A stretch of DNA of 64,000 nt from Zopfochytrium polystomum (taxonomy: Eukaryota; Chytridiomycota; Chytridiomycetes; Chytridiales; Chytridiaceae). The translations under genes were made by a program, and so were the position numbers. The first letter of the stretch is position 1; every line of letters begins with the position of its first letter. The notes beneath the pieces are model-generated. The model was not told the origin of the DNA and ran no database searches. It saw only the letters and a program-made list of their open reading frames with translations. Below, one piece after another: positions 3,001-63,996 of this stretch. The DNA lies in assembly GCA_025765615.1 (NCBI GenBank), contig JAIVFJ010000201.1, forward strand, positions 53,696-117,695. Direction: 5' to 3'.

Positions 3001-4949
3001 CCTTGACGCGACCGCAACCGATCCGTGCGTTTCCATCGGCCCCGTTTCTCCCGTCGTTGGGTGGTGGACAGGTCGGCCGGAGACCAGTACCTGCCGACGT
3101 CCCGCAAAACGAGCGGACGGACTCCCGACCGACCGCACCGTCGAATGCCGATGCCGCGCAGCAACCGCCCGCGGGACAGAAAGCGGTGAGCGGTTCGCCA
3201 TTGGCTGCGGTAGCCCCGCCGGCTGCTACGGCGATCCCGATCGCGAACCCGCATGCAGGCCCGCATCACGCGTACCTTCAACAGCCATGGAAACCGCCAG
3301 AAGTCCTTGCTGCGGAAGCGGACGCCGACGCAGCGGCCGCCGCGCGCGCCGCGATCGCGAGAGCAAACGGCGTCCCGCGGACAATGGCTTCATTTGAGAG
3401 GAGGATGCGCGACCTTCGGAGCCACCACGTGAGGCAGATCGAAGCTTTAAGGGAGCAGCACCGCATCCTGGAGGAAGGCGCGGCCGAAGCGGCGGACGCT
3501 GGTGCTGCGACCGCTGGGGGCGGTGTCGTCGCGGGCGCTGGAGTCGGCCCCACGAACGCAATGATCGAGCACCATCGCAGCCAAATGCGTGCTCTCGTCG
3601 ACGTGCTGCAGCGCGAAGAGTTTGAGCTGGTGGAATCGGCGCGAAGGGTGCTTGGACCGGTCGAGTGGCCGCCCCAAGCGCAGCCACACGGCCCGCAACA
3701 GCACCCCCACCAGCCTCCGGGCTTCTTCATGCGGCGCGACGGCGGAGCCCCCGGTGTCGCTCCCCATCCCGCAACGGCGGCGGAAATAGAGGCCGCCGGG
3801 CCTTCCGACGACGACGCCGCCGCCGCCGCCGCCAGCGCCTTGCCGCCCCAGCAGCAACAGGAGCAGCAGTTTCTCCGACACCAGTACGAGCAGCAGATGA
3901 AGCACTTTCGCCAGCAGCAGATGCAGTCGGAGCAAATGCAGGTGCAGCGGCTCCTGGCGCAGCAGGCGCAACAAATTCAGCTGCAGTATCGTTTGCAACA
4001 TCAGCAGCAGCAGCAACAGCAGGAGCATTTTGCGGCGGCGGCAGCGCCGGCGGCGTACCCTTCCGCGCAGGTGACGAGGCCAAGCGCCGCGGTTCACGCG
4101 CCCGCCCAAGGTGCGATCCAAGTCCGCGCCGGGCCGTCCATGTTGGCACCGCCCGCCGCAGCGGGCGGCGCAGCCAGACCGTCGGTTGCGTTTGCGCTCG
4201 CGGCAGACAGCGCGGACGACGCCGAGGGCAGCAGCGCCGGCACGCTCGTATCTGACTCTGGACGGAGCGTCGATGATGCGGGCGACGACGACGGCGATCG
4301 AGATGGAGACGAGGACGCGGAAGAGGACGAGGAAGAATACGAGGAGGAAGATGAAGAAGAAGAAGATTACGAGGACGAAGATGAAGAGGAAGAGGAGGAG
4401 GAAGCGGCGGACGAGGAAGACGGCAGCGACGGTCCGTACGGCTACGAAGAGTACGAAGACGACATTGCGCAAGACGCGCAGGCCGAGGGCGGAGAGGAGG
4501 GCCACTACTACGACGGCGAAGACGACGGCGGCGGCGGCGGGGGTGGCCCAAGCTACGCGCCACAGCTGCCGGCCGTGGGCGACGGCCGCCACATTTTCCG
4601 CGACGATCCGGCGGCTGCGTCGGCGGCGGGCCCAAGAGGCGAGGCCGATCCGGAAGGCTTGTCAGGCGGGGGTGCCTCCTCCTCCGCCGCGGCTGCTGGC
4701 CAAGCCACAGGGTTCGTCCTCTTGCAAGGGCCGATGGTCGCGTTGCAAGAGTTTACTGCCCCGGCCGCCGGGCTCACTCCTCCGTCCTTTTCGCCAGCTG
4801 CGGCCGCTGCTGGGCGCCGGCAGCAGCAGCGGATCCCCGGCGCCGGGGGCGGAGGAGGAGGAGGCCGAAGAGGAGGTGGAGGAGGAGGTAGAGGAGAAGG
4901 GGGAGGGAGAGGACGGAGAGAGGGGTACCAGGCGGTGTGGCTGTCGTAA
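1..4949 (+). CDS. Low-complexity Q/S/P-rich protein, 5' end outside window
   Basis: Unrecognised protein, at least 1595 residues. The frame is open from base 1, so the true start lies upstream. Exons: <1-798 and 960-4949; the 161-bp intron has a GTGAGC donor after CAG and a CCACCAG acceptor, and joins two frames in phase 0. The protein is mostly disordered: Pro/Ser-rich start, two charged Gln-rich coiled-coil stretches (nt 1230-1430 and 3380-3660, with repeated R/E/Q/L heptad-like patterns), poly-Gln runs near 3850-4020, a long Glu/Asp block at 4200-4520 and a Gly/Arg tail at 4840-4930. Tyr and Asp/Glu-rich patches alternate. No enzymatic motif is seen. Such composition is common in fungal nuclear or scaffold proteins, but I cannot name a family. 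The last Gly-rich part could be a non-coding tail if a further 3' intron exists. Confidence 0.75.
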
Positions 4950-6126
4950 CGATGGAAGGGTGTTTGGGGGGGGGCACGACGCGTCGCTTCACCTAACGTT
5001 CGTCGTCGTCGTCGCCGCCGCCTGAAAACCCTCCTCCGCCTCCTCGTCATTTCTCCCTCCTCCTTGTTCCGCAAGAAGAAGCAAGGAAGGAGAGACTGCT
5101 TGCCACCTGCCCACCCATCCACCCCACCCACCCACCCACCCACTCACAACCAACCCCACCCTCGTCACTGTTAGCCGTTATCTCTCCTATAGTCAGTTTT
5201 GAATGGTTTATCATTTTTTGTTCTTTTTTTTTTTTTTTTGTTTTTGGGTGCTTTGTTTTCTATTTGTTTTTCTCTCACTTTCCCTCTTTCTCCTCTCTTT
5301 GATGACGCAACGGGAAAATCAAACAAAACAAAACAAAAAAGAAATTTCTTCAGGATCAAAAGAACGAAAACGAAAAAGTCGTCCAAAAAGTGGCTGAAGT
5401 GGCGAAAAAAATTTTGTGGGAGTAAATTTACATTTTCCCAACAGAGTGGCGGGAAGACAGACCCTGCCAGAGAGGTATTCTCGGGACAGAGAGCGAGAGA
5501 GAGACAGCCAGAGAGAGAGAGAGAGAGAGAGAGTGAGAGAGAGAGAGAGAGTGTGTGTGTGTGTGATGTTTGAGTCTTCCAAACCCCGGTTAGCGCAGCA
5601 CATCAAATAATAGAATACGCCAAGACCACCACCAACACAGGGCGAGCATCCCAACACTGCAGCCGTTCCTTCCCCGTCCCCCAGCGACCCAGCGGCCAGA
5701 ACGCCGAATCACGGCCTGCGTGCTCTCGATCTCCAAACCGGGACCGCCTTGGGAGCGGCGCTGGGACCCGCCGAAAAGGTGAGCTTGGAAGGGTGCCGCG
5801 ACTTTGAAAGGCGGGGCAGGAAGGAGTGGGCCGGCTGAATCTCTTTTCAGTGAGAGGGGGGGGGGGAGCACTTGAAGTCGCAGTTGGGCTCACCCAAATC
5901 CCAGGTGTGGATTGTGTGGCGTGGCGGCCTCCAAATCTCTTTTTCCGCCAATCCGTTAACTGTTTTCCATCACAACTTTGATAGTAAACCTAGCAGCTGC
6001 GTGCACTCTGCCTCAGTAGTGCGCAAGTTCCCGCAGTAATAGCCCGGTCCCGCTTGGACCGACTGATCTGCCCAACGTTAGCCTTTGTTGCGGCGGCGTT
6101 GTGATTCGCATCAACAACCCTGAAAC

Positions 6127-44699: not shown

Positions 44700-44930
44700 A
44701 TTGGTTCCTGGTGGTACTCAGCCGAGACAAAGTACTCAGCCCAAGGTGGTACTCAGCCCTGGCTGGTACTTAGCCCAGGGTGGTGCACAGCCCAGGCTGG
44801 TACTCAGCCCAGGCTGGTACTTAGCCCAGGCTGGTACTTAGCCCTGGTTGGTACTCAGCCCTGAGTGATGCCCAGCCCTGGGTGGTACTCAGCCCTGAAT
44901 GGGTACTTAGCCCAGGCTGGGGGTTGGTGC
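44700..44930. repeat. GGTACTCAGCCC minisatellite
   Basis: About ten units of roughly 18-20 bp based on TGGTACTCAGCCCAGGC with A/T and C/T variants. The same array, inverted, is present at 47563-47793 in the other arm. Confidence 0.85.
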
Positions 44931-45136
44931 TCAGCCTGTTTTATCTCATTTCTGTGGCCTGCTCTGTGCAGCCCACTGCTCCCTCTGTTTTCTGATGGCT
45001 CCAACCTGCAGGAGTATAAAAGCAGCAACCTCTCACAGAGATCAAAAAAGGAATCCAACCCCCTCCTTGCTTGCTGCCTTGACAGAATCCAGTGCAAAAC
45101 AAGCCAATCTCTCTTCCTCCATTTGCTCTCTCTTCC

Positions 45137-45365
45137 TGTTAGTTTTGGGTCTTTTGGTGTAAGCAGTGTGCAGGAGCTTTGACCTGATACTGCTCTGCAA
45201 GGATGACTTGCAGCATTTTGCAAGTGATGGTCCTTGTAACAGTTTTGTATAAAGACAAACACAAGACTGACAGAAGCCAAGATCAACCTCCCACCACCAC
45301 CACCTTCAGTAGTGTACACCACAGCAGCCCAACCCATCAATCAGCCAACATAGCAAATTCTTTCA
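45137..45365 (+). mobile_element. LTR, 229 bp, copy 2
   Basis: TGTTAG...TTTCA, same length and nearly the same sequence as copies 1 and 3. It lies inside the left arm of the inverted repeat; 140 bp of a TC-rich sequence follow before the arm ends. Confidence 0.75.
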
Positions 45366-45508
45366 CTTCCATCTCTGCCCACTCACTCCTCTCTCCTCTC
45401 TCCATCCTCTCACTCCTCTCCCTTTTCCATCATCACTGCTCTCTCTCTCTCTCTCTCTTCATCCCCACACTCACCAAGTCCTTCCAGTCCTGGGTGGGAT
45501 TTCATCAA

Positions 45509-46984
45509 TTCATCCCTTCTAACTTGGGTCCACGCCCCACAGCTCCCGCAGGGTCGGTATGGCCCAGGGCCTTCAGTTGCGCCACCCACATCACTCCCAG
45601 CTAAGAGTGCGCCTGCAGTCACAGAGCCAGTCGCCGCCCCCACTCATGCCCTGGTCAGGGAAACTGTGGTAGGAGCTCTGGTTCAACATGTAGTCAAATG
45701 AGAAGGATACAGTATGCGTTCTGGCCTTCTGTCCCTGGGAACCATTTGAAATGCATAATGCTCGCCGCAGTCAGGCCCCTGCGTACTCTGCATGTTGGGC
45801 GACATTAGGATCATTGGGGTCCACTTGATCGTTGCGTAATACATTAAAGCGATCTGGGTCGATGCAGTGGTGGAGATCATTGCTTTTGTTGGATAGTTCC
45901 GAAATTAGGTTGTCCAACCAATCTCCAAAATTTGCTGCGCCTTTAAGAATGGGGAATGCACAGAAGGCATACTTGATTTGATCATGCTCGCTCAGGGAGG
46001 AAAATGTGTGAGAGCTTTGCAGGAGAATAGAAATTTGAAAGGCAGTGATTTCCCTGATTTGGTGGCGGGTTCTGAGACTTCTTGAGCAGGTAATATGAGT
46101 TTGGAACTCTTCAATATGCTCTAAACAAATTCAGTAGATGCTTTGAGGTCAAGATATCGGTGTGAATAGGTGTAGCAGGTGTGTGTAACGAGTTGGTGTT
46201 GAGAAAAATGGACTTGTCACAATAAGAAACGAGTTGTGAATGAGAAATGAGTGGTGGCACTGCTAAATAGCGCGAAATGTAGCTACACAGCAAAATTGAA
46301 TATCCCACGACGTAGAGGATCAATTTGGAGGATCACTGAGTTGCCTCAAGTAGATCTGAAGCTGTAGAATGCAGGAAAAATGGTTTGAAGTGAATTGGTG
46401 GAGTTTTGGCTAAGTTGTGTTGGTGGGAAGCTCCAAGTAACGAATTTTTGACGAATTTGGCGCTAATGGGACAGTAAAAACGCGGACAGCTGTTATTCGG
46501 CAAGGAACCAGTCGAGGACCACGACATTTAGTGCAGAGATAGAGTGGAAGAAGCTTTTTCCTGTGGTGGTAAGCGATTCCCAAAGCAATTAAAGGAAGTT
46601 GGCAGACTTGGAAGCCAGGTTTCAGTCGATTTTTGCACTTTCCAATGTGCCTGATGCTGTGAATGATTGATTCTCCTTGTCAAACTACGCTTATGCAACA
46701 AAAAACGACTGTCAAAACGTCTTCTCCACTGCTAAAAGTGGTGTGGGCAGCGGTGGAGGCGTGAGGGACAAAAAGTGACGGCGTTGGTTCTGCAGGTAGT
46801 GATGCTGGTGATGTCTGATGGTGAGTGGCACTGTTTGTTTACTCATTTTACACGCGTTGTTGTACTCCAGGTGATTGGGATGGGTCACAATTTTGTATAA
46901 AAGAAATTACTGCTGCTGTTTGTGGATGGTGGTGAACTACTCTGGTGGACTACTCTCTTGTGATGGTGAAGCTGAGATGGGAGA
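45509..46984. other. Spacer of the inverted repeat
   Basis: 1.48 kb unique sequence between the arms. No intact ORF. Its right end (46870-46985) is a reversed fragment of the 3' part of the second LTR family found complete at 49788-50033. Confidence 0.7.
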
Positions 46985-46985
46985 C
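46870..46985 (-). mobile_element. Partial LTR of second family
   Basis: The reverse complement matches 49905-50028 almost base for base over the stretch with CACAAGAGAGTAGTCCACC. It is truncated at both ends and abuts the right arm of the inverted repeat. Confidence 0.7.
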
Positions 46986-48333
46986 TGATAAAATCCCACC
47001 CAGGACTGGAAGGACTTGGTGAGTGTGGGGATGAAGAGAGAGAGAGAGAGAGAGCAGTGATGATGGAAAAGGGAGAGGAGTGAGAGGATGGAGAGAGGAG
47101 AGAGGAGTGAGTGGGCAGAGATGGAAGTGAAAGAATTTGCTATGTTGGCTGATTGATGGGTTGGGCTGCTGTGGTGTACACTACTGAAGGTGGTGGTGGT
47201 GGGAGGTTGATCTTGGCTTCTGTCAGTCTTGTGTTTGTCTTTATACAAAACTGTTACAAGGACCATCACTTGCAAAATGCTGCAAGTCATCCTTGCAGAG
47301 CAGTATCAGGTCAAAGCTCCTGCACACTGCTTACACCAAAAGACCCAAAACTAACAGGAAGAGAGAGCAAATGGAGGAAGAGAGATTGGCTTGTTTTGCA
47401 CTGGATTCTGTCAAGGCAGCAAGCAAGGAGGGGGTTGGATTCCTTTTTTGATCTCTGTGAGAGGTTGCTGCTTTTATACTCCTGCAGGTTGGAGCCATCA
47501 GAAAACAGAGGGAGCAGTGGGCTGCACAGAGCAGGCCACAGAAATGAGATAAAACAGGCTGAGCACCAACCCCCAGCCTGGGCTAAGTACCCATTCAGGG
47601 CTGAGTACCACCCAGGGCTGGGCATCACTCAGGGCTGAGTACCAACCAGGGCTAAGTACCAGCCTGGGCTAAGTACCAGCCTGGGCTGAGTACCAGCCTG
47701 GGCTGTGCACCACCCTGGGCTAAGTACCAGCCAGGGCTGAGTACCACCTTGGGCTGAGTACTTTGTCTCGGCTGAGTACCACCAGGAACCAATTTACAGC
47801 TTGTTTGAGAAACAGTTGCTTGTAAATTGGTTTGGTTGTTTCCAAATCAGGAAGCTTGTTTTGGAAACAAGCCCCTTTTTTCCTTGTTTTTAGAAATCCA
47901 ATGATTGGTGCAATCTCTGGTGAGCTCAGTATTTATATCACTTTTTTTTAGAAATTCAGTGATTGGTGCAATCCCTGATTCCTAAATGCCTGTTGCATTG
48001 TTCAGATTGCACAGCACAGCAGGAAAGCTGGAATTCCGGATCAGGTAGCGGAATTCCAGTGCAGAGAGCGGAATTCCGGAGCATGAGGCAGTGGTACACT
48101 GCTTCTGCATGCCTGCTGTGCTGTGTTACATGTGCAGAGTGCGTAGTTTGAGCGTTTTTGTGCATGTTCTAATTGCATTGTTCCTACCGGCAGGATGAAC
48201 AAAGCTAGAACAACAGCCGCCTTTGCCTATCTCTTTTTATTGAGAACAGATTAGCCCTTCCAAGCGCCCCATTCAAGTATTGAATCTACTGAGCCCTTCA
48301 AACACCCCATCCAATGTGACTGGATGGAGTTCT
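46985..48333 (-). repeat. Right arm of large inverted repeat
   Basis: Reverse complement of 44160-45508, same internal order (LTR, minisatellite, GGAATTCC triplet repeats). Only the last 80 bp near 48250-48333 differ noticeably. The arms' near identity points to a recent duplication-inversion or gene conversion. Confidence 0.9.
47128..47356 (-). mobile_element. LTR, 229 bp, copy 3
   Basis: Mirror of copy 2 inside the right arm of the inverted repeat. Confidence 0.75.
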
Positions 48334-48629
48334 CAAAGGGATCATCAGTAACAGGCGTAGTGTACCCCATGGGTCGAATCTCAACATGGATGCCTGTTCG
48401 TGGAGCCCATTCCATGAGGAACACCACCAGGGGAGATAAGTCCCTTGGCGCCTGATGTTACGCATAGGGTAAAGTGCAGAAGGCGGGCTGTGGAGAGAGG
48501 AAGAGAGGGCTCTCTGGCACAGGGTGTCCCAAGCCGCATCGTGCAGAAGGCTCACCTGCCAATGATATTTCTATTTCCTTTTTCTGCATCCTAATACTCA
48601 CAAACACCTCTGTAATTTTACTAACACCA

Positions 48630-49660
48630 CCAAATCATACCCCTGAAGACAAAACAATTGCTGAAACACCAACTAGAGACCTACCACCTCAAGCACCATC
48701 ACCAGAACCACCACCACCAGAGCCTCCACCTACACATGTGCGCAAACCACCATGCAGTCCTACGCGTATCCCATCTCCAAAACATACTCAATCAGGACAT
48801 CTTTATTTAACCAGTGTCAAATGTCCAGACCCAGCAACATGCACTGAGGCCATGAGTGGAAAGTGGTCCAAAGAGTGGATAGCAGCAGAGCAGACAGAGA
48901 TTGACGCCCTCAGAATGCTTGCAGCTTTTGAAGTCATTGATCGACCCAAGAATGTCAATGTCGTGCAGAACAAATGGGTTTACAAGGTTAAGCTTCGACC
49001 AGAGGCAGCATTGAGCGCTTTCGCGCACGACTAGTGGCTAAGGGCTTTACACAGCGTTGTGGCGTTGATTTCTGGAACAATCACTCTCCTGTTGTTCGCA
49101 TCAATAGTCTACGATGGCTCCTTGCTATGACAGCCTCAAACGGTTGGGACACAGCCACGGTTGATATTAGCAATGCCTACCTCAACAGCAAACTTGATGT
49201 CCCCACCTACATGGAGCAACCGGATGGCTACCATTCTGTTGGCAAGGTCTGGCTTTGGCACAAAGCTGTCAATGGTATCAAGCAAGCGGGGCATTGTTGG
49301 TATCAGGAACTCATTGGTCGTCTCAAGTCTGCTGGCTACCAACAAAGCGCAGCAGATCCGTGCATCCTCTTCAAGCACACAACGTGTTATTTTCATTGCG
49401 ATCTATGTCAATGTTATTTGTTTCTTTGGGCACACAGAGGAAATCACCTCTGCCATCGCTTTGCTAAAATCCCTCTATAAGCTCCACGAACTAGGTCATA
49501 TCAAGACCGTACTGAATATGGATGTTCATCGAACGCAAACTGGCATCTACTTGCATCAACGAACTTACACCAAAGAGTTACTCCAACGCCATGCAGACCT
49601 AGTCAATGGAAAGACAGCAGTACCTGCTCTCCCAAGTTCTCTCACTCTTCAACCTTGAGA
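48630..49660 (+). pseudogene. Ty1/copia pol remnant (reverse transcriptase)
   Basis: Translates to a copia-type RVT_2 reverse transcriptase: a Pro-rich linker, WIAAEQTEIDAL, NKWVYKVKLRPE, then after a frame change ARLVAKGFTQRCGVDF, the NSLRWLLAMTAS and DISNAYLNSKLDVPTYMEQPDGY blocks, and after a second frame change an IAIYVNV segment where active elements have YVDD. So it carries at least two frameshifts (near 49005 and 49380) and a substituted catalytic Asp pair. It ends shortly before a purine-rich tract and an LTR, so it is the 3' half of a dead copia element in plus orientation. Confidence 0.9.
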
Positions 49661-53033: not shown

Positions 53034-53830
53034 AAGTTTTTCTTTCTTTCTTTTTTTTTCTTTTACAAATTTATATTGTAATATTTTTCAAGCAAATCAA
53101 TGCAGATGGGCCACACCTCTGAGTAACAGGGTGGTTGCAGTTGCTAATAGAGCAAGTAACTGGGAAATAATCCGAAAAATATGAACATTCATACGCTGAT
53201 AGAACTCAATGAGCTCTATCTGCTGGTGTCGGAGAATCATCATTTTTTCAAAATGTCGCGGAGTGCCAAGCAAAAAACGCTATCTCGGTATAGGGGAAAC
53301 AATGCAACTCGCCATTTTGGGAGCGCCTAGATGTTGCTGTGATGAAACTATTCACCAAGTTTCATCTTTGTACCACTTGTAACAGTGGAGTTACACAGGG
53401 ACAAAGATTTTTTGCAGCAGAGTGCACAACCTATTTTTCTTAACTTTGTTAGGAGAAAAATTACCCTGGTACACAGGGACCAAGTAGTTGAGTAGAACTA
53501 AGAGTCTTCTACTTTTTAGCTCAAAATGAGCGTTCCCAGACCTCTGTGTGTGGTCAGCAGCAGGTTGGCGCAGGGTTTTTAACAGGTTTCTTAGTCAGGT
53601 GCGTATTGCAGGGCGGGACGCCCCTAGTGACGCGTTTCTGGCCAGTTCAGCAGTACAAGACACAAAAGAAGAGTTGCTTTGAACTCTTTTTCCAGGAGGA
53701 ATTGCTGAATTTGCTCGTTACTCTTGAGGGTTAGGTCAGGTGTCATCACAACTCAGCACTTAGCGCTGAGTGTAAATTTGCTGGTTACGATGGTTTGCAG
53801 CACGCTCCAAAACCATTCCTATAGCAAGAG
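53034..53830. other. AT-rich non-coding region
   Basis: About 800 bp with no supported ORF. Begins with a T-rich stretch (53041-53062). Ends at the first telomeric-type 12-mer. Confidence 0.6.
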
Positions 53831-53842
53831 GGTTAGGGTTAG
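53831..53842 (+). repeat. Telomeric-motif junction 1
   Basis: GGTTAGGGTTAG followed by C: nearly two TTAGGG units at the 5' boundary of the first tRNA-headed element. Confidence 0.85.
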
Positions 53843-54657
53843 CGCCGGCCTGTGTAGGACAGTGGTTAAGTCGGCTGACCTGCACAGTGGGGGGCCCAGG
53901 TTCGATTCCCGGCAAGACGAAACAGGGAAGTGCGGAGTAAAAACCATCCGATAAGGACACCCTGGCCACCGGCAACGGATGCCCCCTGGTGGTTAGTCTG
54001 GCTAGTCCAGGCGAGGTAGCTCAAGTAACGGGAAGGTACCTTGGTGGTACTGGGCCGTCGCGGTTAAGTTGAGTGATGTCCCCAATGACAGCTCCCCATA
54101 CGGACAGCTAAGGAGACTATACTGACCGGCGTGACTGATGAGAGCGGCTACCGGTGTGCTAAGCATGCTCAAGGTTTCACGGTGCCTAGAAAATAAGTAG
54201 CCCTAAGCGAGGGGGGCGAGGGTTCAACTCCCTCCTAGGTACGCGGTCAGGGTGGCGCCTCGCAGCGCCACTCCTTGGTTTTTGCTCTATCATCGATTTT
54301 TGCTCTCTCTTCGATCGTTGCTTATTCTTCGACTTCTGCTTTCTCTTCGTATTGTGCTTATTCTTCGATTTACGCTTTTCTTTCTTCGACTCGCCCCCCC
54401 TATGATCGGGGGGCCTTACGCATTCCCACCACCCCCTTCGGGGGGGGGTCGGGCCTCATAGTTTCCGTTGGTGGTTGTTCTTCGTTGGGTGTCAGTGTGG
54501 GTTTTTTCAAGGTTCGCCCTTTTTTCCCTCACGCCCGCACTCGGCGTATTCGGGCCTAGATGCAGGTCTCTAACTGTTGTTTCCACTTCATCATTGGGCC
54601 GGTGAGGGTGGATTCGATCACCAAAACAGTTGTAGTAGATAATAAATTTCTTGAGGA
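53843..54657 (+). mobile_element. tRNA-headed SINE-like element (element A)
   Basis: 815 bp bounded on both sides by a telomeric 12-mer. The head (53843-53915) has an A-box-like GGACAGTGGTTAAG and a perfect pol III B box GGTTCGATTCC (53899-53909), and resembles a degenerate tRNA with a GCA anticodon position. The body (53940-54250) recurs at 54738-55056 in element B and ends with a second B-box-like GGTTCAACTCC (54221-54231). The tail (54270-54657) has tandem CTTCGATTTTTGCT-like units, a C-run/G-run hairpin (54396-54449) and a 3' end shared with element C. Head-body-LINE-like tail is SINE architecture. Confidence 0.6.
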
Positions 54658-54669
54658 GTTAGGGTTAGC
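54658..54669 (+). repeat. Telomeric-motif junction 2
   Basis: GTTAGGGTTAGC joining the 3' end of element A to the 5' end of element B. Confidence 0.9.
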
Positions 54670-57600
54670 CCTCTGAGTTTGCTGGTGAGGGGCGCCGGTT
54701 CGATCCCGGCAAAGGTACTAGGGGAAAGGCACTTAAAAACCATCTGATAAGGACACCCCGGCCCTCCTCTGGTAGCCCCTGGTGGTTAGTACGGTGAAAG
54801 CCGTGCGAGGTAGCTCAAATAACGGGAAGGTACCTGGCACGCTCCCCAGGTACTGGGCCGTCGCGGTTAAGTTGAGTGATGTCCTCCAATGACGGCTCCC
54901 CATAAGGACAGCTAAGGAGGGCTATACTGACCGGCGCGACTGATGAGAGCGGCTACCGGTGTGCTAAGCATGCTCAAGGTTTCACGGTGCCTAGAGAATA
55001 AAGTTGAACCCACAGTTGGGGGTCCTGAGGGTTCGACTCCCTCCTAGGTACGGTCAGAAGGCTCGTTCAGATAGGAGCCAGTGTGCCCTTGACCCCCAGA
55101 AGATGGGCCATTACGAAGATCATTTCCGCACAACCATAGGCCATGATCCAACTGGAACTGATGTCCCTGACGCCGTGGCTCTGGAAGAATCAGCGGTTAC
55201 TGTGAACAAAGTCCCTCTGAAGCAGTCGGAAGTCTCCTGGATTAAGAAGGTTCATGTTGAAGAAGCATGCAAGGTTGCCCCCAGGGGCAAAGCCCCTGGA
55301 GAAGACATGCTCTTTGGGGAGTTGGTCTCAATTGCTCCGCACTTGGTTGCTGCAGTCCTGCACAGATTCTTTCAGCTTGTGGCCTCTCTTCATGTGGTTC
55401 CTTCTCTGTGGTCCGTGGCCAATGTGGCCTTGGTCTACAAGAACAAGGGTCTCAACAGTGATGTTGCAAACTACAGACCCATCTCCTTGTGCTCTAGGAT
55501 GCGACTTGTGTTTGAGCGAGTGATTGCACCCCAGGTTGAGCGCGTGGTTGAAGGGATGATCCACAGGGCGCAGGGGGGTTTCAGAAGAAAGCGGTCCACC
55601 ATGGACCAGGCCTACACTTTGCATGAGCTTCAGCAGCTGAACCCCCAGATGCATGTGGTGTATTTGGACATTAAGGCTGCGTATGACTGCACAAACAGGA
55701 GTCTGGTGTGGGACTCCATCTGGTTTGCCAAGAATGACAAGAGTCGTGACTTTACAAGGACTCAACTGCTGCCGATCCTCAGATCTTTGTTTGATTTCAA
55801 TGCATGCCAGCTGCTGGTACTTGGGAACAAGTCTGCTCAGATCCAAGTGACAAGAGGATTTCTCCAAGGCACAGTCCTGTCACCCATGCTGTTCAATGTA
55901 GCCATCAACTCCTTGCCTCAGACATTGGCCATGTCTTTCAGGGACCACATGCTGACATTTAATGCAACCTCGCTCAACTCGCTGCTCTTTGCAGACGACT
56001 CCTCAGTTTTTGCCAAGGATGCGACAGTACTTCAGAGAATGCTAGACAAGGTGCATGAGTGGTCCCTTAAGCGGGGGATGACATTTGCTGCCAAGAAGTG
56101 TGTTGCAGTTTCAGCCAAGAAGAATTTGAAGTTGAAGATGAATGGAGTGGAGATTCCCCAGGAGGAGTCTACTACCCAGTTGGGTCTTGTGCGCACCTGC
56201 AGGGGTATTGACTTTGAGGCCTCGCTGGTCATGAGACTGAGGAAAACAGAAAAGATGCTGGCCTTTTTGGCTTCTCGGGGTTTCAATGGCTGGGGCTTCA
56301 GGCCTGTGAGCTCTTACAGGGTTTACATGTGTTTCCTGAGACCAATGATGGAGTATGGGTTTGCTCTGCGCCCCTTGACCCACACACAGCTGAAGGATGC
56401 GCAGAAGTTGCAGGACAAGTGCCTGCGGCAGGCGCTGTCACTGGGGAAGACCTCCTCAGGGGCGGCCCTGCATCTGATGTTTGGAGTGGCCCCTGTGGCA
56501 GCCAGGAACAAGATGCTGAACGCTAGATACTTTTTCAGACTGCACCACATTCAGGATGCTCGCAACACAACCGCTCAGATGTACAGGCATATGGTGGAAA
56601 AGATTGCTTCAGGGGCCTCTGTGGGACAGTCCTTGACAAAGTTTTCGCTTGACTATACGGATATTCAGGATTTCTTGAACTCGGTGAGGCGGCCCTCCTT
56701 TGTGGAGTTGCCACTTGTGCTCCCCACAACCAAGGCCTATGACATTGAGTTGCCAGTGGTGAGAACAAAGAACATTGAGGCTGCAGACATGCTGTCGATG
56801 CACAAGCGGGCTCTGGTGAGGTGCCAGAAGAAATCCTCCCCTACTGGGGTGGCTCAGGCTTTGGAGGTGCCTTCACACATGGGGCCATGCCAAGTTATTC
56901 GATCTGGTGCGGCATTTAACAGGAAGTGGCTCAGACACCTGCTGATGTGGATGGCTGGGATGGTAGCATTTCACCAACAGTGTGCAAGGGCTGGCTGTGC
57001 AGAGAAGTGCACTAGGAGGCATGTTTTGGAGTGTTCAGGGGTTAAGGACAGGCTGGAGAGGCTGCATCCTGAGCTGATTCCCACTGCAGAGCAACAGGAT
57101 TTGAACATTTCAGCAGTGGATTTGGGCCTAAGGTCGCTGGTCTTTTGGGCCCCCTACAGTGCCAAAGCTGAGGACAAGATCTCCAAGGAGACTCGCATTG
57201 CATCAAAGAAGATGGGAATGAAGCTGGCCAGGATGATCATGCAGATGCGCATTGAGTGTGGAGGACTTGCGAATTTCACTGATGCTTCAGAGACAACAGC
57301 AGCACAGGAGGCAGAGGTTGTGGTGGAGGCAGGTCGTGTGGACCGACAGGATATGAGCATTCAGGAACGGATGGCAGCAGCCAGGGTGCGCAAGCTTGCA
57401 AGGTCGGTCATCATCACCACCTATGATCCAGTAAGGAACAAACAGTGGCGGGAGTCAAGGGAGAAGTGGAAGAAGAAGGAAACGGAGGGGGTTGAGGGGA
57501 CAGTGGACGGCAACGGGCATGTGGACTCTGATTCAGAGGAGGAGGCTGGAGCTGGGTGACAGTTTGTGCAGTGTTTCAGGTGCAGTCCTTCGAACCTCAT

Positions 57601-57850
57601 TTGTTCTCTATTTGTTTTCTTGTTGTTAAATTTCACCTCACCTCTGTGGATCCTTTCCTCTTTTTCTTTTTGACCTAGTTGCTGTCCTTTGTTTTTCTCT
57701 TATGCCTTTTGATTCTCTACTTGGCACCTCTTTCTTGCCTCTGGACATGTTTCTCCTATTTCATATGTACGCACTTTTTAACTTTCAAAGTTGCAGATTC
57801 CTCACCCCTTCCCTCGGGGGGGGGTTGGAGCGAATAAATCCCGTTGAAAA
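54670..57850 (+). mobile_element. Non-LTR retrotransposon with intact RT (element B)
   Basis: 3.2 kb flanked by the telomeric 12-mer. The 5' region has a B box GGTTCGATCCC (54697-54707), a 320-bp body homologous to that in element A, and another B box GGTTCGACTCC (55030-55040). Then one long ORF for a LINE-type reverse transcriptase (55103-57559) and a 290-bp T-rich 3' UTR ending in CCCTTCCCTCGGGGGGG and AATAAATCC before the next 12-mer. Confidence 0.75.
55103..57559 (+). CDS. LINE-type reverse transcriptase, 818 aa, no endonuclease domain seen
   Basis: Intact reverse transcriptase of a non-LTR retrotransposon. Start: first ATG of the frame, just after the pol III-like 5' region. Motifs in order: GKAPGEDMLFGEL, NYRPISLCSRMRLVFERVI, GGFRRKRSTMDQ, motif A LDIKAAYDC with D189, motif B RGFLQGTVLSPMLFNVAIN, motif C LFADDSSVFA with D298-D299, motif D GMTFAAKKCVAV and the motif E-like TTQLGLVRTCRG. 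The thumb and helical connection follow, then a C-terminal CARAGC-AEKC-TRRHVLEC cysteine-histidine cluster and an acidic, basic tail. All catalytic Asp are present and there is no stop or frameshift, so it may be active. An apurinic-type endonuclease domain, expected N-terminal to this, is absent from the ORF, and a restriction-like PD-D motif is not obvious downstream. Confidence 0.93.
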   Translation: MGHYEDHFRTTIGHDPTGTDVPDAVALEESAVTVNKVPLKQSEVSWIKKVHVEEACKVAPRGKAPGEDMLFGELVSIAPHLVAAVLHRFFQLVASLHVVPSLWSVANVALVYKNKGLNSDVANYRPISLCSRMRLVFERVIAPQVERVVEGMIHRAQGGFRRKRSTMDQAYTLHELQQLNPQMHVVYLDIKAAYDCTNRSLVWDSIWFAKNDKSRDFTRTQLLPILRSLFDFNACQLLVLGNKSAQIQVTRGFLQGTVLSPMLFNVAINSLPQTLAMSFRDHMLTFNATSLNSLLFADDSSVFAKDATVLQRMLDKVHEWSLKRGMTFAAKKCVAVSAKKNLKLKMNGVEIPQEESTTQLGLVRTCRGIDFEASLVMRLRKTEKMLAFLASRGFNGWGFRPVSSYRVYMCFLRPMMEYGFALRPLTHTQLKDAQKLQDKCLRQALSLGKTSSGAALHLMFGVAPVAARNKMLNARYFFRLHHIQDARNTTAQMYRHMVEKIASGASVGQSLTKFSLDYTDIQDFLNSVRRPSFVELPLVLPTTKAYDIELPVVRTKNIEAADMLSMHKRALVRCQKKSSPTGVAQALEVPSHMGPCQVIRSGAAFNRKWLRHLLMWMAGMVAFHQQCARAGCAEKCTRRHVLECSGVKDRLERLHPELIPTAEQQDLNISAVDLGLRSLVFWAPYSAKAEDKISKETRIASKKMGMKLARMIMQMRIECGGLANFTDASETTAAQEAEVVVEAGRVDRQDMSIQERMAAARVRKLARSVIITTYDPVRNKQWRESREKWKKKETEGVEGTVDGNGHVDSDSEEEAGAG

Positions 57851-57862
57851 GTTAGGGTTAGC
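57851..57862 (+). repeat. Telomeric-motif junction 3
   Basis: GTTAGGGTTAGC between the 3' UTR of element B and the start of element C. Confidence 0.9.
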
Positions 57863-59232
57863 GAGGAAAAACTTTGCAATTTTCGGGGGTGGTGGCTGCG
57901 TAGCCTTGGCCGCTCGGCTCCTGGCGACGCTGCCTTCGATGGTGGCGGCGGGTGGTGCGGGGCCCCAACCGCCAGCGTGTGGCGGGCCCCGCAGCGTCGT
58001 GAGCGATCACGGCGCCGGGAACGGCGAGTCTGAAGCGTGGGATGTGATCCCCCAGGCTGGCCTGCGAAAATGGCAGTAGCAGGACGTTTTCAGATCGTTT
58101 GACCTGCGATCCCCCCCTCAGTGGCGATTGCCCCAAGGCTTGTCGCATGGGAAGCGTTCCCCCCCGCTTGGCCCAGGAAATGAGCAGTACTGGGATGCGA
58201 CAGTAAGTTGGCGATCTAGCTGTGTGTTGCAGGTTTGGTGGTATTGCGACATTCCTCCCTAGCCCCTGTCGCTTCGGGCGCTTTGGCGCCCTTTTTTCCC
58301 GTTGATCATAGCAATCCCTCCGACTATCGCCTTTTCGACATGCTCGGAGTGACGGCTGACCCCGTCGCTCCCCGCTCGATCGCGCTCAAGCATGGCAGGT
58401 AACGACGAGAGGGGGTTGAGTCCCCCTTCCTGATCCTTTTTCCTGCCTTGTCACGCCTGTCTTCGTTTTTGCATCCTGCGACGCCGACTTTGGTTGGGAC
58501 AGCGCCTTGCGGCGCTGCCTGTCGCGCTTCAGCTCCGGCGGCGCCTTGCGGCGCTGCTCTTCGTACTTCGTCCGCGGCGGCGCCGCAAGGCGCCGTCCTC
58601 CGCACTTCGGATGGGGCGGTGCCCCGCACCGCCCTGTGTTTCCTCGTTTGGCTGGGGCGGCGCCTCGCGGCACCACACCCTGCAGTTCGGTTAGGGCGGC
58701 GCCTTGGGCCACCTGTCGTACTTCGGTTGGGGCAGCGCTTTGGGAGCTGCCCGATTGCTTTTTTTGACTCTCGATTTCCTCCGATTTGTTTTTCCGTTTT
58801 TCGCATGTGTCTTCGCTTCCTCTTCGATCTTTGCATTTTCTCCGACCTTACGTCTTCGCTTCCCTTTCGATCTTTGCTTTATCTTCGATCTCTGCTTATT
58901 CTTCGATTCCTGCTTTTTCTTCGAATTTTGCATTACCCTTTGATTTATGCTTTTCTTTCTTTGATCTGGCCCCCCTCGTTGAAGGGGGGCCCTACGCATT
59001 CCCACCCCCCCCTTCGGGGGGGGGTCAGGCCTCATAGTTTCCGTTGGTGGTTGTTCATTGTTGGGTGTTAGTGTGGGTTTTTTCAAGGTTCGCCCTTTTT
59101 TCCCTCACGCCCGCACTTGGCGTATTCAGGCCTAGATGCAGATCTCTAACTGTTGTCTCCACTTCATCATTGGGCCAGTGAGGGTGGATTCAATCACCAA
59201 AACAGTTGTAGTAGATAATAAATTTCTTGAGG
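57863..59232 (+). mobile_element. Non-coding element with hairpin and T-rich tandem repeats (element C)
   Basis: 1.37 kb flanked by the telomeric 12-mer. 58490-58760 holds about five units carrying GGCGCCTTGCGGCGCTGC-like palindromes, each able to form a strong hairpin. 58800-58960 holds tandem 17-20 bp units of the TTCGATCTTTGCTT type, as in element A. The last 270 bp, from the C-run/G-run hairpin (58974-59029) to 59232, are about 95% identical to the 3' end of element A. No coding capacity is supported. It looks like a non-autonomous relative sharing a 3' tail for priming. Confidence 0.6.
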
Positions 59233-59244
59233 AGTTAGGGTTAG
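59233..59244 (+). repeat. Telomeric-motif junction 4
   Basis: GTTAGGGTTAGC at the 3' end of element C, after the same TTTCTTGAGGA sequence that precedes junction 2. Confidence 0.9.
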
Positions 59245-60225
59245 CCTTTTTAGCTCTGAGTAGCACGAGGTTTAGGGTGTTTCTGCGAATTTTACCAGAA
59301 GCGTACAGTTTAATTAAGGAAACCGCTTTTCGTGAAATTCAGCGTGTTTTGCATAACAAGCATGCAGAGTCTCGACCATGAATAGTAAGAGAACAACTTG
59401 AGTATCTTTTCCAACCCAGGATTCCTGAGGTTTTGGAAATCTCCCTTATCCAAAATGACGGAAATTAGAAACGCAACGCAGCTGGGCACAAGCTTTTTCT
59501 GCAATTGACCGGCAGCTCCTTGCTTCTCAAAACTGAAAGGTCTGCAGAAGGTATCTTTTAAGCCCACCACCAGAGAGGGATATGCTTCCTAGCGAAAGTT
59601 AGCTTTGTTGGCATTGCCGGCAAGGTAGCAGATTGAAATCCGGCTGTAACACCTGATTCTACATATTAACTTCATATGAAAAATATATATTCATGATGCT
59701 GAAAGCAAGCTCTACAAGTGTAGGGGTATGGCAGGTCCGCTGAATGCCTCCACAAAAAGTTGATTTCTGGACCTAACTCCGTGGATTCTGAACGTGTCAA
59801 AAGCGTAACTATGTCGTTTGATAGCGCTTGGCGAGGGCTTTCCAACGCACTATCACGAAAATCTCTTGCTAGATTCCCCGTGGAGTTACGATGTTGGGGC
59901 ATCGAACCCCTCTGAACACGAATTAACTTTGCGATTTTTTTCTAATTTTCTTTTACTAATTAAAAGTTCCTAACTTTTGCAGATCTGTATGCTGATTTGG
60001 CAGAGCTTTCAAACGCGCTATCCATGCGTGGGATATGTTGAGTTTTGGGGTCAAGTTACTAAGTGGTGACATCAAAAATGTGGTCCTGTCTCGCGGCAGG
60101 TTGAAAGTCAGGTGCCACCCAGCTTTGTCGTTGCTGACAGTGAAAACACATTCTTTGTTTGTGAAAAATACATTCAAAATTCAACTGCGAGCTGTACGGC
60201 TGACACAATTCGAGGAAGCCCCCCA
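59245..60225. other. AT-rich unannotated region
   Basis: No ORF supported. Contains two diverged copies of a short segment with GCTTTCCAACGC/GCTTTCAAACGC (59838 and 60008). Ends at the first direct repeat. Confidence 0.5.
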
Positions 60226-61511
60226 TGTGAGACTATACTCACTCCTTTGACCCTGGGATCTGGGCCCTAGAGTGAGGGAAAGCAAATAATAGGCTAAAAC
60301 TAACTTTATTGGGCTGTTGTCTAGGGGGTGTTTCAACCCTACTACTTGCCTAGTCCACGAAGTATCCCTACTGATCTGTCTAACAGGGGTCTCAAACACA
60401 AAGAATGAACATTCTGAGGGATCAGTGCTGGAGCACCGATTACTCACATGGCAACAGGCCGATGCAAGGGGAAACAGAAGGGCACTCCCAAGGGTGCAAC
60501 ACAACTGCAGAATAAAGAGAGAGAAGAGGAAATGAGGTTTTTTATCTCAGGAACCAAATCTCAAATACAACAGGAGCAGTTAATAACAACAGGACAGACA
60601 GGGCGCAACCTAGCGCCCCTTGTCGCAAACAGTGCTGCAGGAGCCCTCATCGTCGCCAGCGACGGGAGGGAGAGAGAGAAGGGAGTCAACTATGTAGGGG
60701 TCTGAATCACCAGCAGGGAACTTGCACGCGGAAACACCTGCGATCGTACACACACCCCACTGGGCTGCGTCGGCACGATCACTCTTGGGCTTATTCGCAT
60801 CGCACTCGTACTCACACATCTCACTCTCACAGCAATAGGACTGAGGCAGGCACTCGTGGATCGAACACTCAGGTGTCAGGGACCGCGCAGGGCGCAGCCA
60901 CCTACACCCTTGTGGGGTCAACAACACCACTGCCGTCGCCTCCGCGGCGGGCGAGTGTCTGTGATCCTCACTCCAACACAGAGCCACCAGTGTCACACAG
61001 TCGGTGGTGGGGCCAGCTGCATACCCCACCTGCGGCCCTTAAGAGGAGCCCTCGAAGGGACCATGTACTCACCTGGGTGTGTACCACCTCTCACTACCCT
61101 CACCTTTGCGAGCCAGATGAATTTGAAGGGACTCTGTATTGGTGCCAAAGGACAGAAATCAGATTGAAGAAAAAAGGAAAAGAGAAATGGCCCAAAAACA
61201 GAGAGAGAGAAAATTGACAAGTGTAACCCATGACTCAGAGCATCCACCACAAATGCTCTACATCCCCCCAACCCTATGTGTGTATGGACAAGTGCCGAAA
61301 ATAAATAATAAATTAGGCGGGCTCAGGGTACAGCCTGTCAGGCACCCCATCCCCAGGCAGTTGGGCAGTCTCTGTAAGTCACCGAAAAAGAAAATATGTT
61401 GAGAAAACCCTGGTGCAACAGAAACTGTTAAGACGAAAGTAGTAAAAGCAGGCCCAATAATAAAGACAGGTTAGCTGCAAATACACTTTGATAACGCCTT
61501 GGAAACTAAAG
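60226..61511 (+). repeat. Long direct repeat, copy 1 (LTR-like)
   Basis: 1.29 kb repeated in the same orientation at 62652. Starts with the palindrome GTGAG-ACTATA-CTCAC and ends CTTGGAAACTAAAGA. No coding potential is convincing. Size and pairing suit LTRs of a retrotransposon or two copies of a dispersed element; the start is TG but the end is not CA. Confidence 0.8.
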
Positions 61512-62651
61512 ATCTGGGAATAATAATAGGGGTCCCAATCCTTGCAGTTTTATGACAGGTACGCTTGTTTTTGTGAATAAAACCCCAAGACTTTATCACT
61601 GAGACCTTGGTGTAGTCTCGCACCAAACTCATATTGATGGGCTCAAGGTCATAAATATGTGTGGAGCAACAAATGTTATAAAGGACAGCTGTGCGTTGCT
61701 TTTCATCACTGATTCGCTGGTTTTCTGCAGAAGGATCCAGTGGTCGAATATTGTCGCCGGCGCCCATAATTGTTATGAACTGAGGGGGATTGCAAGGAGG
61801 GCCATCAAAAAGAACTGTGGCAGATGTGGAGGCGGAAAGCTGGTGGTGTGCAAAATGAATAGCCATTATGGAGCCACAGGAGGATAAAGCAGAGGTGATT
61901 GCGTGACGCAGGGAGTCCTTCAGTTCATCAAATTTTTTTCCAGTAGTTCCAGGAGCCAGGTCTTGGAGGATGAGTCAGTTGGCATGTCTGTTGGTGAATT
62001 CTGTGGCAGCAGCTGGTAGTTGACAGGTGAAGAAAATTTAATGTTGGGATGTGGTCTGAAGACAGGCAGCCTGTTCATCCAACAAAGGATGCAAAAGGCG
62101 GAGCGAGTAAGAAGCCTGGTCCTTTGAGAGCAAGGGCTGCTGTCGGATGGTGAGGTTGCAAGTGGAGGTGAAGTGTAGGATGTCAAGTTCAGTGAGTGGG
62201 GCAACAGTGGGGTCTGGTTGAGTGGTGATTGTCAATATGTGTTGATCAGCGTGGGTGACGAAAAACTTGGAGGGAGGTGGGCTGCTCATGAAAGGGGGTA
62301 GCAATCCCAATTCAGCACAAAAGTTGTGATGGTGAAGGGGGTGATTGCAGTCTGATTTGGAAGACGAGGCCAGCAATCGCTGGAGGCAATCTGGCAGCAA
62401 TCCGGAGTTATTCTGGCGACGATCTGGAGTCAATCTGACGATGATCTGACGATCTGACAACGATCTGACATCAATCTGGCAGTGGGAAGGCGGTGGAGGG
62501 TGCAGTCTTGAGTGTCAGTTGACTTTTGCCCATCACGTTGCTCCGCAGTCCTGCTCCACTTCGGGGGGCTTGTTGGGATTCTACTCTCTTCCTTCTGCCC
62601 ACACTCTAAATATTTTGATTCTTATCACCGACAAAACAACAGAAGTACTGT
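61512..62651 (-). pseudogene. Sequence between the direct repeats with broken ORFs
   Basis: 1.14 kb. Minus-strand frames 62460-62038, 62204-61920 and 61866-61471 code for helical, Leu/Ser/His-containing sequence in three frames, suggesting one decayed protein of about 300 residues. No motif is recognised; a gag remnant is possible because of the flanking repeats. Confidence 0.35.
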
Positions 62652-63996
62652 TGTGAGACTATACTCACTCCTTTGACCCTGGGATCTGGGCCCTAGAGTG
62701 AGGGAAAGCAAATAATAGGCTAAAACTAACTTTATTGGGCTGTTGTCTAGGGGGTGTTTCAACCCTACTACTTGCCTAGTCCACGAAGTATCCCTACTGA
62801 TCTGTCTAACAGGGGTCTCAAACACAAAGAGTGAACATTCAGAGGGACAATCCTCTGAAGGATCGGTGCTGGAGCACCGATTACTCGCATGGCCGCGGGC
62901 CGATGCAAGGGGAAACGGAAGGGCACTCCCGAGGGCGCAACACAACCGCAGAATAAAGAGAGAGAAGAGGGAAACAGGGGTTTTTATCTCAGGAACCTAA
63001 TCTCACACACAACAGGAGCGGTTAATAGCGACGGGACGGACAGGGCGCGACCTAGCGCCCCTCGTCGCGGAGGGTGCTGCAGGAGCCCCCGTCGTCGCCA
63101 GCGACAGGGGGGGAGAGAGAGAAGGGAGTCGACTATGTAGGGGTCGGAAGGTCGCCAGCAGGGAACTCGCACGCGGAAACACCTGCAATCGTACACGCAC
63201 CCCGCTGGGCTGCGTCGGCACGATCACTCGACCAACGGGCTTTATCGCATCGCACTCGTACTCACACATCTCACCCTCACAGCAATAGGACCGAGGCAGG
63301 CGCTTGTAGATCGAACTCTCAGGTGTCGGGGGCTGCACTGGGCGCAGCCACCAACACCCTCGCGGGGACGGGAAGGTTGGGGACAACGACGCCGTCGTCG
63401 TCACCACCACCACCACCGTCATCGCAGCGGGCAAGCGCCAGGGATCCTCACTCCAACACAGAGCCGGCAATGTCACACAGTCGCTGGTGGGGCCAGCTGC
63501 ATTCCCCACCCACGGCCCCTTAAGAGGAGCCCCACGAAGGGACCATGTACACACCCGGGTGTGTACCATCTCTCACTACCCTCACCTTTGTGAGCCAGAT
63601 GGATTTGAAGGGACTCTGTATTGGTGCCAATGGACAGAAATCAGATTGAAGAAAAAAGGAAAAAGAGAAATGGCCCAAAAACAGAGAGAGAGAAAATTGA
63701 CAAGTCAACCCCCTGACTTGGAGCATCCACCACAAATGCTCTAAGTCCCCCCCAACCCTATGCGTGTATGTACAAGTGCCAAAAATAAATAATAAATTAG
63801 GCGGGCTTGAGGTACGGCCTGTCAGACACCCCATCCCTAGGCAGTCAGGCAGTCTCCGTTAGTCACCGAAAAAGAAAATATGTTGAGAAAACCCTGGTGC
63901 AACGGAAACTGTTAAGACGAAAGTAGTAAAAGCAGACCCCATAATAAAGACGGGTTAGCCGCAAATACACTTTGATAACGCCTTGGAAACTAAAGA
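62652..63996 (+). repeat. Long direct repeat, copy 2 (LTR-like)
   Basis: Same order as copy 1 with scattered substitutions and extra triplet-rich DNA (ACC/GTC repeats near 63390-63425) explaining its greater length. It reaches the window end, so its true end may lie outside. Confidence 0.8.

What the first reader, a model, noticed from the sequence alone, without database searches (positions are those of the whole stretch)
53831..59244. Head-to-tail array of three retroelements separated by a telomeric 12-mer
GTTAGGGTTAG(C) occurs at 53831, 54658, 57851 and 59233. Each copy sits exactly at an element boundary: A, B and C all lie between two copies. Isolated TTAGGGTTAG exactly at such joins is what telomere-repeat-targeted LINEs (TRAS/SART type) or telomere-associated endonuclease-deficient retroelements leave behind. 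Here the array combines an RT-coding element, a tRNA-headed element and a hairpin-rich non-coding element, which would be a multi-component telomere-linked system.
Basis: partly seen in the sequence, partly recalled or inferred. Interest (0 to 1): 0.88.

Follow-up and report, generated by a model that had tools for sequence, protein, structure and literature searches.

The report
Telomere-seeded, self-renewing retroelement landing site
In the genome of a chytrid fungus, copies of several retroelement families stand head to tail, each flanked by copies of one 12-letter telomere-like sequence; each insertion likely duplicated that sequence and so would have left a fresh landing site for the next, likely near chromosome ends and also at interior sites, two of which look like repaired breaks.

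Summary
Confirmed and largely explained. GTTAGGGTTAGC occurs four times (53832, 54658, 57851, 59234) and delimits three retroelement copies. The host is the chytrid Zopfochytrium polystomum. Genome-wide, 75 of 88 exact LINE1 3' ends are followed at once by GTTAGGGTTAG, the other 13 by variants with 1-3 changes. The 12-mer is not an element tail: within arrays, tails agree at position 12 in 104 of 104 pairs (72 expected by shuffling) but at position 13 only as expected (45 of 104), also between element families. So it is a 12-bp target-site duplication covering the whole target (two telomere units), and each insertion leaves an intact site. A full-length LINE carries an APE-type endonuclease and RT. 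B is a 5'-truncated LINE2-LINE1 chimera; A and C are non-autonomous and share a 3' tail. On contigs of 60 kb or more, arrays with the exact telomeric 12-mer lie near contig ends, 3' end outward, in 10 of 14 cases, never inward; arrays with other 12-mers, the class of this one, show no such bias. At this locus 16 of 16 fetched paralogous flanks lack the 12-mer. Best reading: telomere-targeting LINEs and passengers colonised short telomeric seeds, some at break scars. It works like SART/TRAS and MoTeR; membership in either is not shown.

The parts
53601..53831 (+). left flank: copy of a dispersed repeat family, cut at the telomeric 12-mer
   Evidence: flanks joined around one 12-mer match paralogous copies running straight across the site
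53832..53843 (+). target-site duplication, copy 1 (GTTAGGGTTAGC)
53844..54657 (+). element A: non-autonomous, tRNA-like head; 53887-54243 is about 82% identical to the LINE2 5' block; 54293-54657 is the tail shared with C
54658..54669 (+). target-site duplication, copy 2
54670..55053 (+). element B, 5' part: LINE2 5' block (LINE2 positions 31-412, 96%)
55053..57850 (+). element B, 3' part: 5'-truncated LINE1 (positions 3254-6050, 97%)
55004..57559 (+). ORF of B, 851 aa, RT domain at residues 154-382; the endonuclease half of ORF2 is missing
   Evidence: compare full ORF2
57851..57862 (+). target-site duplication, copy 3
57863..59233 (+). element C: non-autonomous, GC-rich inverted repeat; no match to the LINE1 or LINE2 copies in the library comparison; 58867-59233 is the tail shared with A
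59234..59245 (+). target-site duplication, copy 4
59246..59475 (+). right flank: the same dispersed repeat resumes here

Best explanation
This is a nest of three non-LTR retroelement copies at one 12-bp telomere-like site, likely built by successive target-primed insertions that each duplicated the whole site. Shown: the 12-mer on both sides of each of the three copies, array-specific variants shared by different families elsewhere in the genome, the fixed register of the 3' ends, and a full-length relative with APE endonuclease plus RT. Inferred: the ORF2 endonuclease nicks the C-strand just before GTTAGG. The freed 3' end primes copying of LINE RNA, or of passenger RNA (A, C). The second nick falls 12 nt away, so the duplication contains the complete target. 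Insertion therefore does not consume its site, and arrays grow head to tail. B likely arose when the enzyme jumped from a LINE1 RNA to a LINE2 RNA. In telomeres this would give subtelomeric arrays with 3' ends outward. Elsewhere the elements use short telomere-like seeds; at this locus the seed likely came from break repair, because paralogous copies of the flank lack it.
For:: in held loci, 77 of 93 tails of three types are followed by exact GTTAGGGTTAG, 10 more with one mismatch, 3 with two, 3 with more; 75 of 88 exact LINE1 termini genome-wide carry the exact 11-mer; others (3; 10) show variants with 1-3 changes at the other 13. (tails only, 20 arrays): same 12-mer in 100 of 104 within-array pairs (52.8 expected, 0 of 20000 shuffles reach it), base 12 in 104 of 104 (72.4 expected), base 13 in 45 (45.6 expected); pairs of different tail types share the 12-mer in 67 of 68. 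One search, with 15 hand-picked 5'-flank sites added: 132 of 137; of 110 motif sites in held loci, 88 have an element ending at them and 78 one starting, often 5'-truncated. LINE1 with ORF1 (418 aa) and ORF2 (1260 aa; Exo_endo_phos E 1.4e-6, above the cut-off; RVT_1 E 2.7e-25); exact-telomeric arrays on contigs of 60 kb or more lie within 20 kb of an end with the 3' side outward in 10 of 14 (1.3 expected), 0 inward; other arrays 5 outward, 6 inward, 14 interior of 25 (Fisher p 0.002); 16 of 16 fetched flank copies, of 26 that cross the site, lack the 12-mer; at C173 four of four fetched paralogs lack it and hold about 0.9 kb that C173 lacks; of 12 interstitial GTTAGGGTTAGC loci, 7 are occupied.
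Against: No activity was measured. The cleavage sites are read from junctions only. No copy in the held loci is followed by a long (TTAGGG)n tract, so insertion into a living telomere was not seen. Contig ends are not all chromosome ends; in the unsplit set 9 of 35 end-near arrays point inward. Only 7 of the 20 multi-tail arrays carry variant 12-mers and so inform the duplication test. In the two ORF2 proteins the endonuclease has Asp where 8 of 9 aligned relatives have Glu, and the endonuclease match of LINE2 is below Pfam's cut-off. At C564 the two 12-mers differ. 5' ends lacking the motif were not searched for. The break-scar origin of the seed rests on two loci; at C201 point changes in a diverged repeat copy remain possible. 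Some arrays are segmental duplicates (C44 three times; C203 and C4), so counts are not all independent.
Confidence: 0.83

Rival explanations
1. The 12-mer is the elements' own 3' tail (like a poly(A) or microsatellite tail), and arrays form by template jumping from one RNA to the next.
For: It follows nearly every 3' end in one register.
Against: Variants are array-specific and shared by different tail types (C21, C102, C321, C201); the copy before the first element is preceded by non-element DNA; in C201 and C173 the 12th base belongs to the flank.
Confidence: 0.04
2. Telomeric DNA and retroelements were captured together at double-strand breaks, without endonuclease-directed insertion; the 12-mers are filler.
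For: At C201 and C173 the 12-mer is foreign to the paralogous sequence and stands in place of about 14 nt and about 0.9 kb.
Against: Later insertions repeat the native 12th base; 5'-truncated copies keep exact 3' ends; the register is the same in 88 of 88 exact LINE1 termini, variants included.
Confidence: 0.08
3. Arrays grew by recombination or break-induced replication between 12-mers, as proposed for some MoTeR arrays, not by repeated insertion.
For: C44 holds three similar blocks, so segmental amplification does occur.
Against: In many arrays adjacent copies belong to different families and have different 5' truncation points.
Confidence: 0.1

Closest known systems
SART1 and TRAS1 (Bombyx mori telomere-specific LINEs; PMC7265360 and PMC4700185, passages seen)
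   Same: endonuclease and RT in ORF2, two ORFs; insertion into telomeric repeats in a fixed register; elements lie in the G-strand direction, as the 3' junction described for SART1 implies
   Different: SART1 needs at least three TTAGG units, has a poly(A) tail and joins at AGG. Here single 12-mers are occupied, the 3' ends are GTTGAAAA, ATTGAAAA or TTGAGGA, the join is at GTTAGG, and the duplication equals the target. The clade was not tested.
MoTeR1/MoTeR2 (Magnaporthe oryzae; PMC7367193 and PMC8381367, passages seen)
   Same: fungal; head-to-tail arrays of autonomous and non-autonomous elements separated by telomeric sequence
   Different: MoTeR has a putative restriction-like endonuclease, spacers from half a unit to more than 20 units, and 5' ends toward the chromosome end; here APE type, a 12-bp spacer and, in end-near exact-motif arrays, 3' ends outward
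FoTeRs (Fusarium oxysporum; PMC12857005, passages seen)
   Same: fungal telomere-associated non-LTR elements
   Different: FoTeR has a restriction-like endonuclease, the 5' end toward the terminus, no copies reported outside telomeres and no definable target duplication; here APE type, opposite orientation, exact 12-bp duplication, interior sites too

Membership tests
Site-specific non-LTR retrotransposon (LINE) | RT of non-LTR type with an endonuclease in the same protein | tested here: met
   (LINE1; the LINE2 endonuclease match is below Pfam's cut-off)
Site-specific non-LTR retrotransposon (LINE) | one fixed target, with target-site duplication | tested here: met
SART/TRAS | APE-type endonuclease (named so from recall; the passages seen speak of an EN domain) | tested here: met
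   Exo_endo_phos E 1.4e-6; GDFN and SDHR motifs
SART/TRAS | at least three telomere units as target (SART1) | tested here: not met
   single 12-mers are occupied
SART/TRAS | poly(A) 3' end joined to AGG (SART1) | tested here: not met
   GTTGAAAA, ATTGAAAA or TTGAGGA joined to GTTAGG
SART/TRAS | membership of the R1 clade by RT phylogeny (recalled) | not tested
   no R1-clade references on hand; by phmmer the RT of B scores higher to human L1 ORF2p (3e-13) than to R2 (8e-8)
MoTeR/FoTeR | C-terminal restriction-like endonuclease | tested here: not met
   an N-terminal Exo_endo_phos domain is found instead; no restriction-like endonuclease family listed by Pfam
MoTeR/FoTeR | 5' end toward chromosome terminus | tested here: not met
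   exact-motif arrays on contigs of 60 kb or more: 10 of 14 with the 3' end outward, 0 inward; all arrays: 26 outward, 9 inward
MoTeR/FoTeR | telomeric spacers of variable length (MoTeR) | tested here: not met
   one 12-bp unit after the tails examined
SINE (elements A, C) | non-coding, mobilised by a partner LINE | tested here: inconclusive
   same site and duplication as the LINEs and a LINE2-like 5' block in A; mobilisation in trans is inferred
SINE (elements A, C) | tRNA-type Pol III promoter | tested here: inconclusive
   box A/B-like motifs in A; ARAGORN negative; not examined for C

The most novel reading that the evidence does not exclude
Short telomeric seeds left where telomerase-type repair healed chromosome breaks become permanent, self-renewing docking sites: each insertion by a telomere-targeting LINE or its passengers re-creates the complete 12-bp target, so telomere-like arrays are exported from chromosome ends to interior break scars.
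Probability: 0.5. Interest if true: 0.78.

Novelty: new variant of a known kind. Interest (0 to 1): 0.64.

Why it matters
In the papers seen, telomere-targeted LINEs are described from insects and, with another endonuclease type and the opposite orientation, from two ascomycete fungi. Here an APE-type system in a chytrid, with at least two LINE families and two non-autonomous families, shares one site. Because interior sites carry variant 12-mers, the target duplication can be measured, which the FoTeR authors state they could not do inside telomeres. The result gives a simple rule for head-to-tail nesting: a duplication as long as the target makes insertion non-consuming. It also suggests that interior telomeric scars can be recognised by the arrays they attract.

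Tried and rejected
Rejected: the 12-mer as an element tail; an endonuclease-deficient telomere element; chance; arrays tied only to chromosome ends or long telomere tracts. Rfam at both thresholds: nothing convincing. PDB search with the LINE1 endonuclease part alone: nothing relevant. RNA folds of the heads: z-scores between -1.8 and 0.6, not informative. Literature: searches returned no paper; the listings showed none describing this system by title or abstract start. The library lacks most subscription journals, so absence from print is not claimed. The third empty-site test (C564) was mixed: left-flank paralogs end where the telomeric motif starts, while the right flank, motif included, matches another contig end (C1). 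Dropped before the counts: one 5'-flank site whose offset I set wrongly (C16, 494328) and three tail rows too unlike the motif. One search adds ten variant termini to the junction set, all outside the exact-motif class.
Full report
Observation. The 11-mer GTTAGGGTTAG occurs at 53832, 54658, 57851 and 59234, all followed by C. It delimits A (53844-54657), B (54670-57850) and C (57863-59233). A and C share 368 aligned positions of 3' tail at 90% identity; A and B share a 5' block at about 80%.

Host and copies. The window is G000:C201:53696-117695 of an 80-Mb, 761-contig genome. A window protein matches Zopfochytrium polystomum at 100% identity over 82% of the query, on a contig of 117,695 bases, the length of C201; the species is a chytrid. 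The 3' part of B, the A/C tail, the A head and the B body gave 41, 40, 40 and 40 matches (only about 40 candidates are scored per search, so these are lower bounds).

What the elements are. A full-length relative of B's 3' part lies at C579:348-6397 (L080): ORF1 of 418 aa and ORF2 of 1260 aa, overlapping by ATGA, with an Exo_endo_phos domain (E 1.4e-6) and RVT_1 (E 2.7e-25). I call it LINE1. A second one (LINE2, L081:564-5331) has an ORF2 of 1250 aa, with RVT_1 and an Exo_endo_phos match below the cut-off (21.6 against 24.5 bits), and starts with a tRNA-like block. B in the window is LINE2 positions 31-412 joined to LINE1 positions 3254-6050, so it lacks the endonuclease. The join shows no clear microhomology. 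A and C are non-autonomous.

Junctions. In the held loci 93 tails of three types were examined. 77 are followed by exact GTTAGGGTTAG, 10 differ at one base, 3 at two and 3 at more; of these last three, two are inverted tail pieces on C16 and one is an indel variant. Genome-wide, an 18-base LINE1 terminus occurs 88 times, and 75 of these are joined to the exact 11-mer. Of the other 13, three are and ten were fetched; these are variants with 1-3 changes, such as GTTAGGGTTATG or GTTAGAGTTAGT. Of 110 motif sites in the held loci, long telomere arrays left out, 88 have an element ending at them, 78 have one starting after them, 66 have both and 10 have neither. 5' ends without the motif were not searched for.

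Duplication or tail. If the motif were part of the RNA, variants would go with the family. They go with the place. With tails alone (90 kept, 20 arrays with more than one, 104 pairs) the 12-mer is identical in 100 pairs (52.8 expected; 0 of 20000 shuffles reach it), base 12 in 104 of 104 (72.4 expected), base 13 in 45 (45.6 expected); pairs of different tail types share the 12-mer in 67 of 68. With 15 5'-flank sites picked by me (105 junctions, 46 arrays, 29 with more than one, 137 pairs) the figures are 132, 136 (86 expected) and 57 (61 expected). Seven of the 20 arrays carry variant motifs and bear the information: C102 has GTTAGGGTTAGT four times with three tail types, C21 has GATAGGGTTAGG with two, C201 has GTTAGGGTTAGC (four times with its left flank). 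The repeat is therefore 12 bp and comes from the site. C564 is an exception: its two 12-mers differ. Some arrays are segmental duplicates.

Where the arrays lie. From four hit lists (161 hits, 4 without contig length), 71 arrays result. On contigs of 60 kb or more, 35 of 51 lie within 20 kb of an end (12.5 expected), 26 with the 3' end outward and 9 with the 5' end outward (p 0.006). Split by motif (51 arrays, 39 on such contigs): exact GTTAGGGTTAGG arrays, 14, of which 10 outward, 0 inward, 4 interior; other 12-mers, 25, with 5 outward, 6 inward, 14 interior (Fisher p 0.002 for outward). The window's array is of the second class, though 4.8 kb from a contig end. Telomeres are (TTAGGG)n. In C20 and C253 the telomere is attached directly to an interrupted LINE of the array; in C15, C42 and C63 the last 3-4 kb hold no element of the library. 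These are the five telomeric ends that I looked at.

Pre-insertion sites. The window's flanks, joined around one 12-mer, give 33 matches, of which 26 are dispersed copies that run straight across the site. I fetched 16 of the 26; all 16 lack the 12-mer. Nine of them have GGTACTGTTAAC in the aligned place where C201 has GTTAGGGTTAGC, and the other seven have close variants of it. At C173 four paralogs with both flanks match up to the base before the 12-mer and resume about 0.9 kb later. In both, base 12 fits the native flank (C in 15 of 16 copies at C201, 4 of 4 at C173). A third test (C564) shows a flank repeat that ends where the motif begins, with the right flank matching the end of C1. So the motif is foreign at these loci and likely entered at a repaired break. 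The telomerase step is inferred; telomerase-made interstitial repeats are recalled from other organisms, not looked up. Of 12 interstitial GTTAGGGTTAGC loci, 7 carry elements and 5 show none of the library next to the motif; a thirteenth is a telomere.

Mechanism and comparison. The likely route is target-primed reverse transcription with a C-strand nick before GTTAGG and a second nick 12 nt away. SART1 (passages of PMC7265360) needs three units and joins at AGG; MoTeR (passages of PMC7367193, PMC8381367) and FoTeR (passages of PMC12857005) have restriction-like endonucleases and the reverse orientation. The system works like these; membership in either is not supported. The clade remains open (one search scores L1 above R2; R1 not tested).

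Noticed in passing
L080 ORF2 residue 39 and L081 ORF2 at the same column: The position that is Glu (mostly an ETW-type motif) in 8 of 9 aligned relatives (one has a gap) is Asp in both LINEs; the GDFN and SDHR/TDHR motifs are kept.
   Followed up: partly
L082 (C20 end) and L018 (C253 end): Telomere repeats are attached directly to an interrupted LINE2 and an interrupted LINE1-like copy, as if broken ends had been healed.
   Followed up: partly
G000: (TTAGGG)4 occurs 261 times on + and 0 times on - strands of contigs; in C15, C20, C42 and C63 it lies at the right-hand end. Only the first 100 places were listed. Perhaps an assembly effect.
   Followed up: no
window 60226-63996: A second repeat unit of about 2.4-2.5 kb occurs twice head to tail; its relation to the three elements was not examined.
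   Followed up: no
window 53887-54243, 54670-55053 and the LINE2 5' end: A block of about 370 nt is shared by the SINE-like A and the LINE2 5' region at about 82%, with two T-arm-like motifs (by eye); no Rfam family matches convincingly. Its function is unknown.
   Followed up: partly
window 48474-49658: ORFs reading like pieces of a Copia-type polyprotein (by eye), broken into several frames.
   Followed up: no
window 44855-45604 and 46937-47638: The same ORFs appear on opposite strands, so this looks like a large inverted duplication.
   Followed up: no
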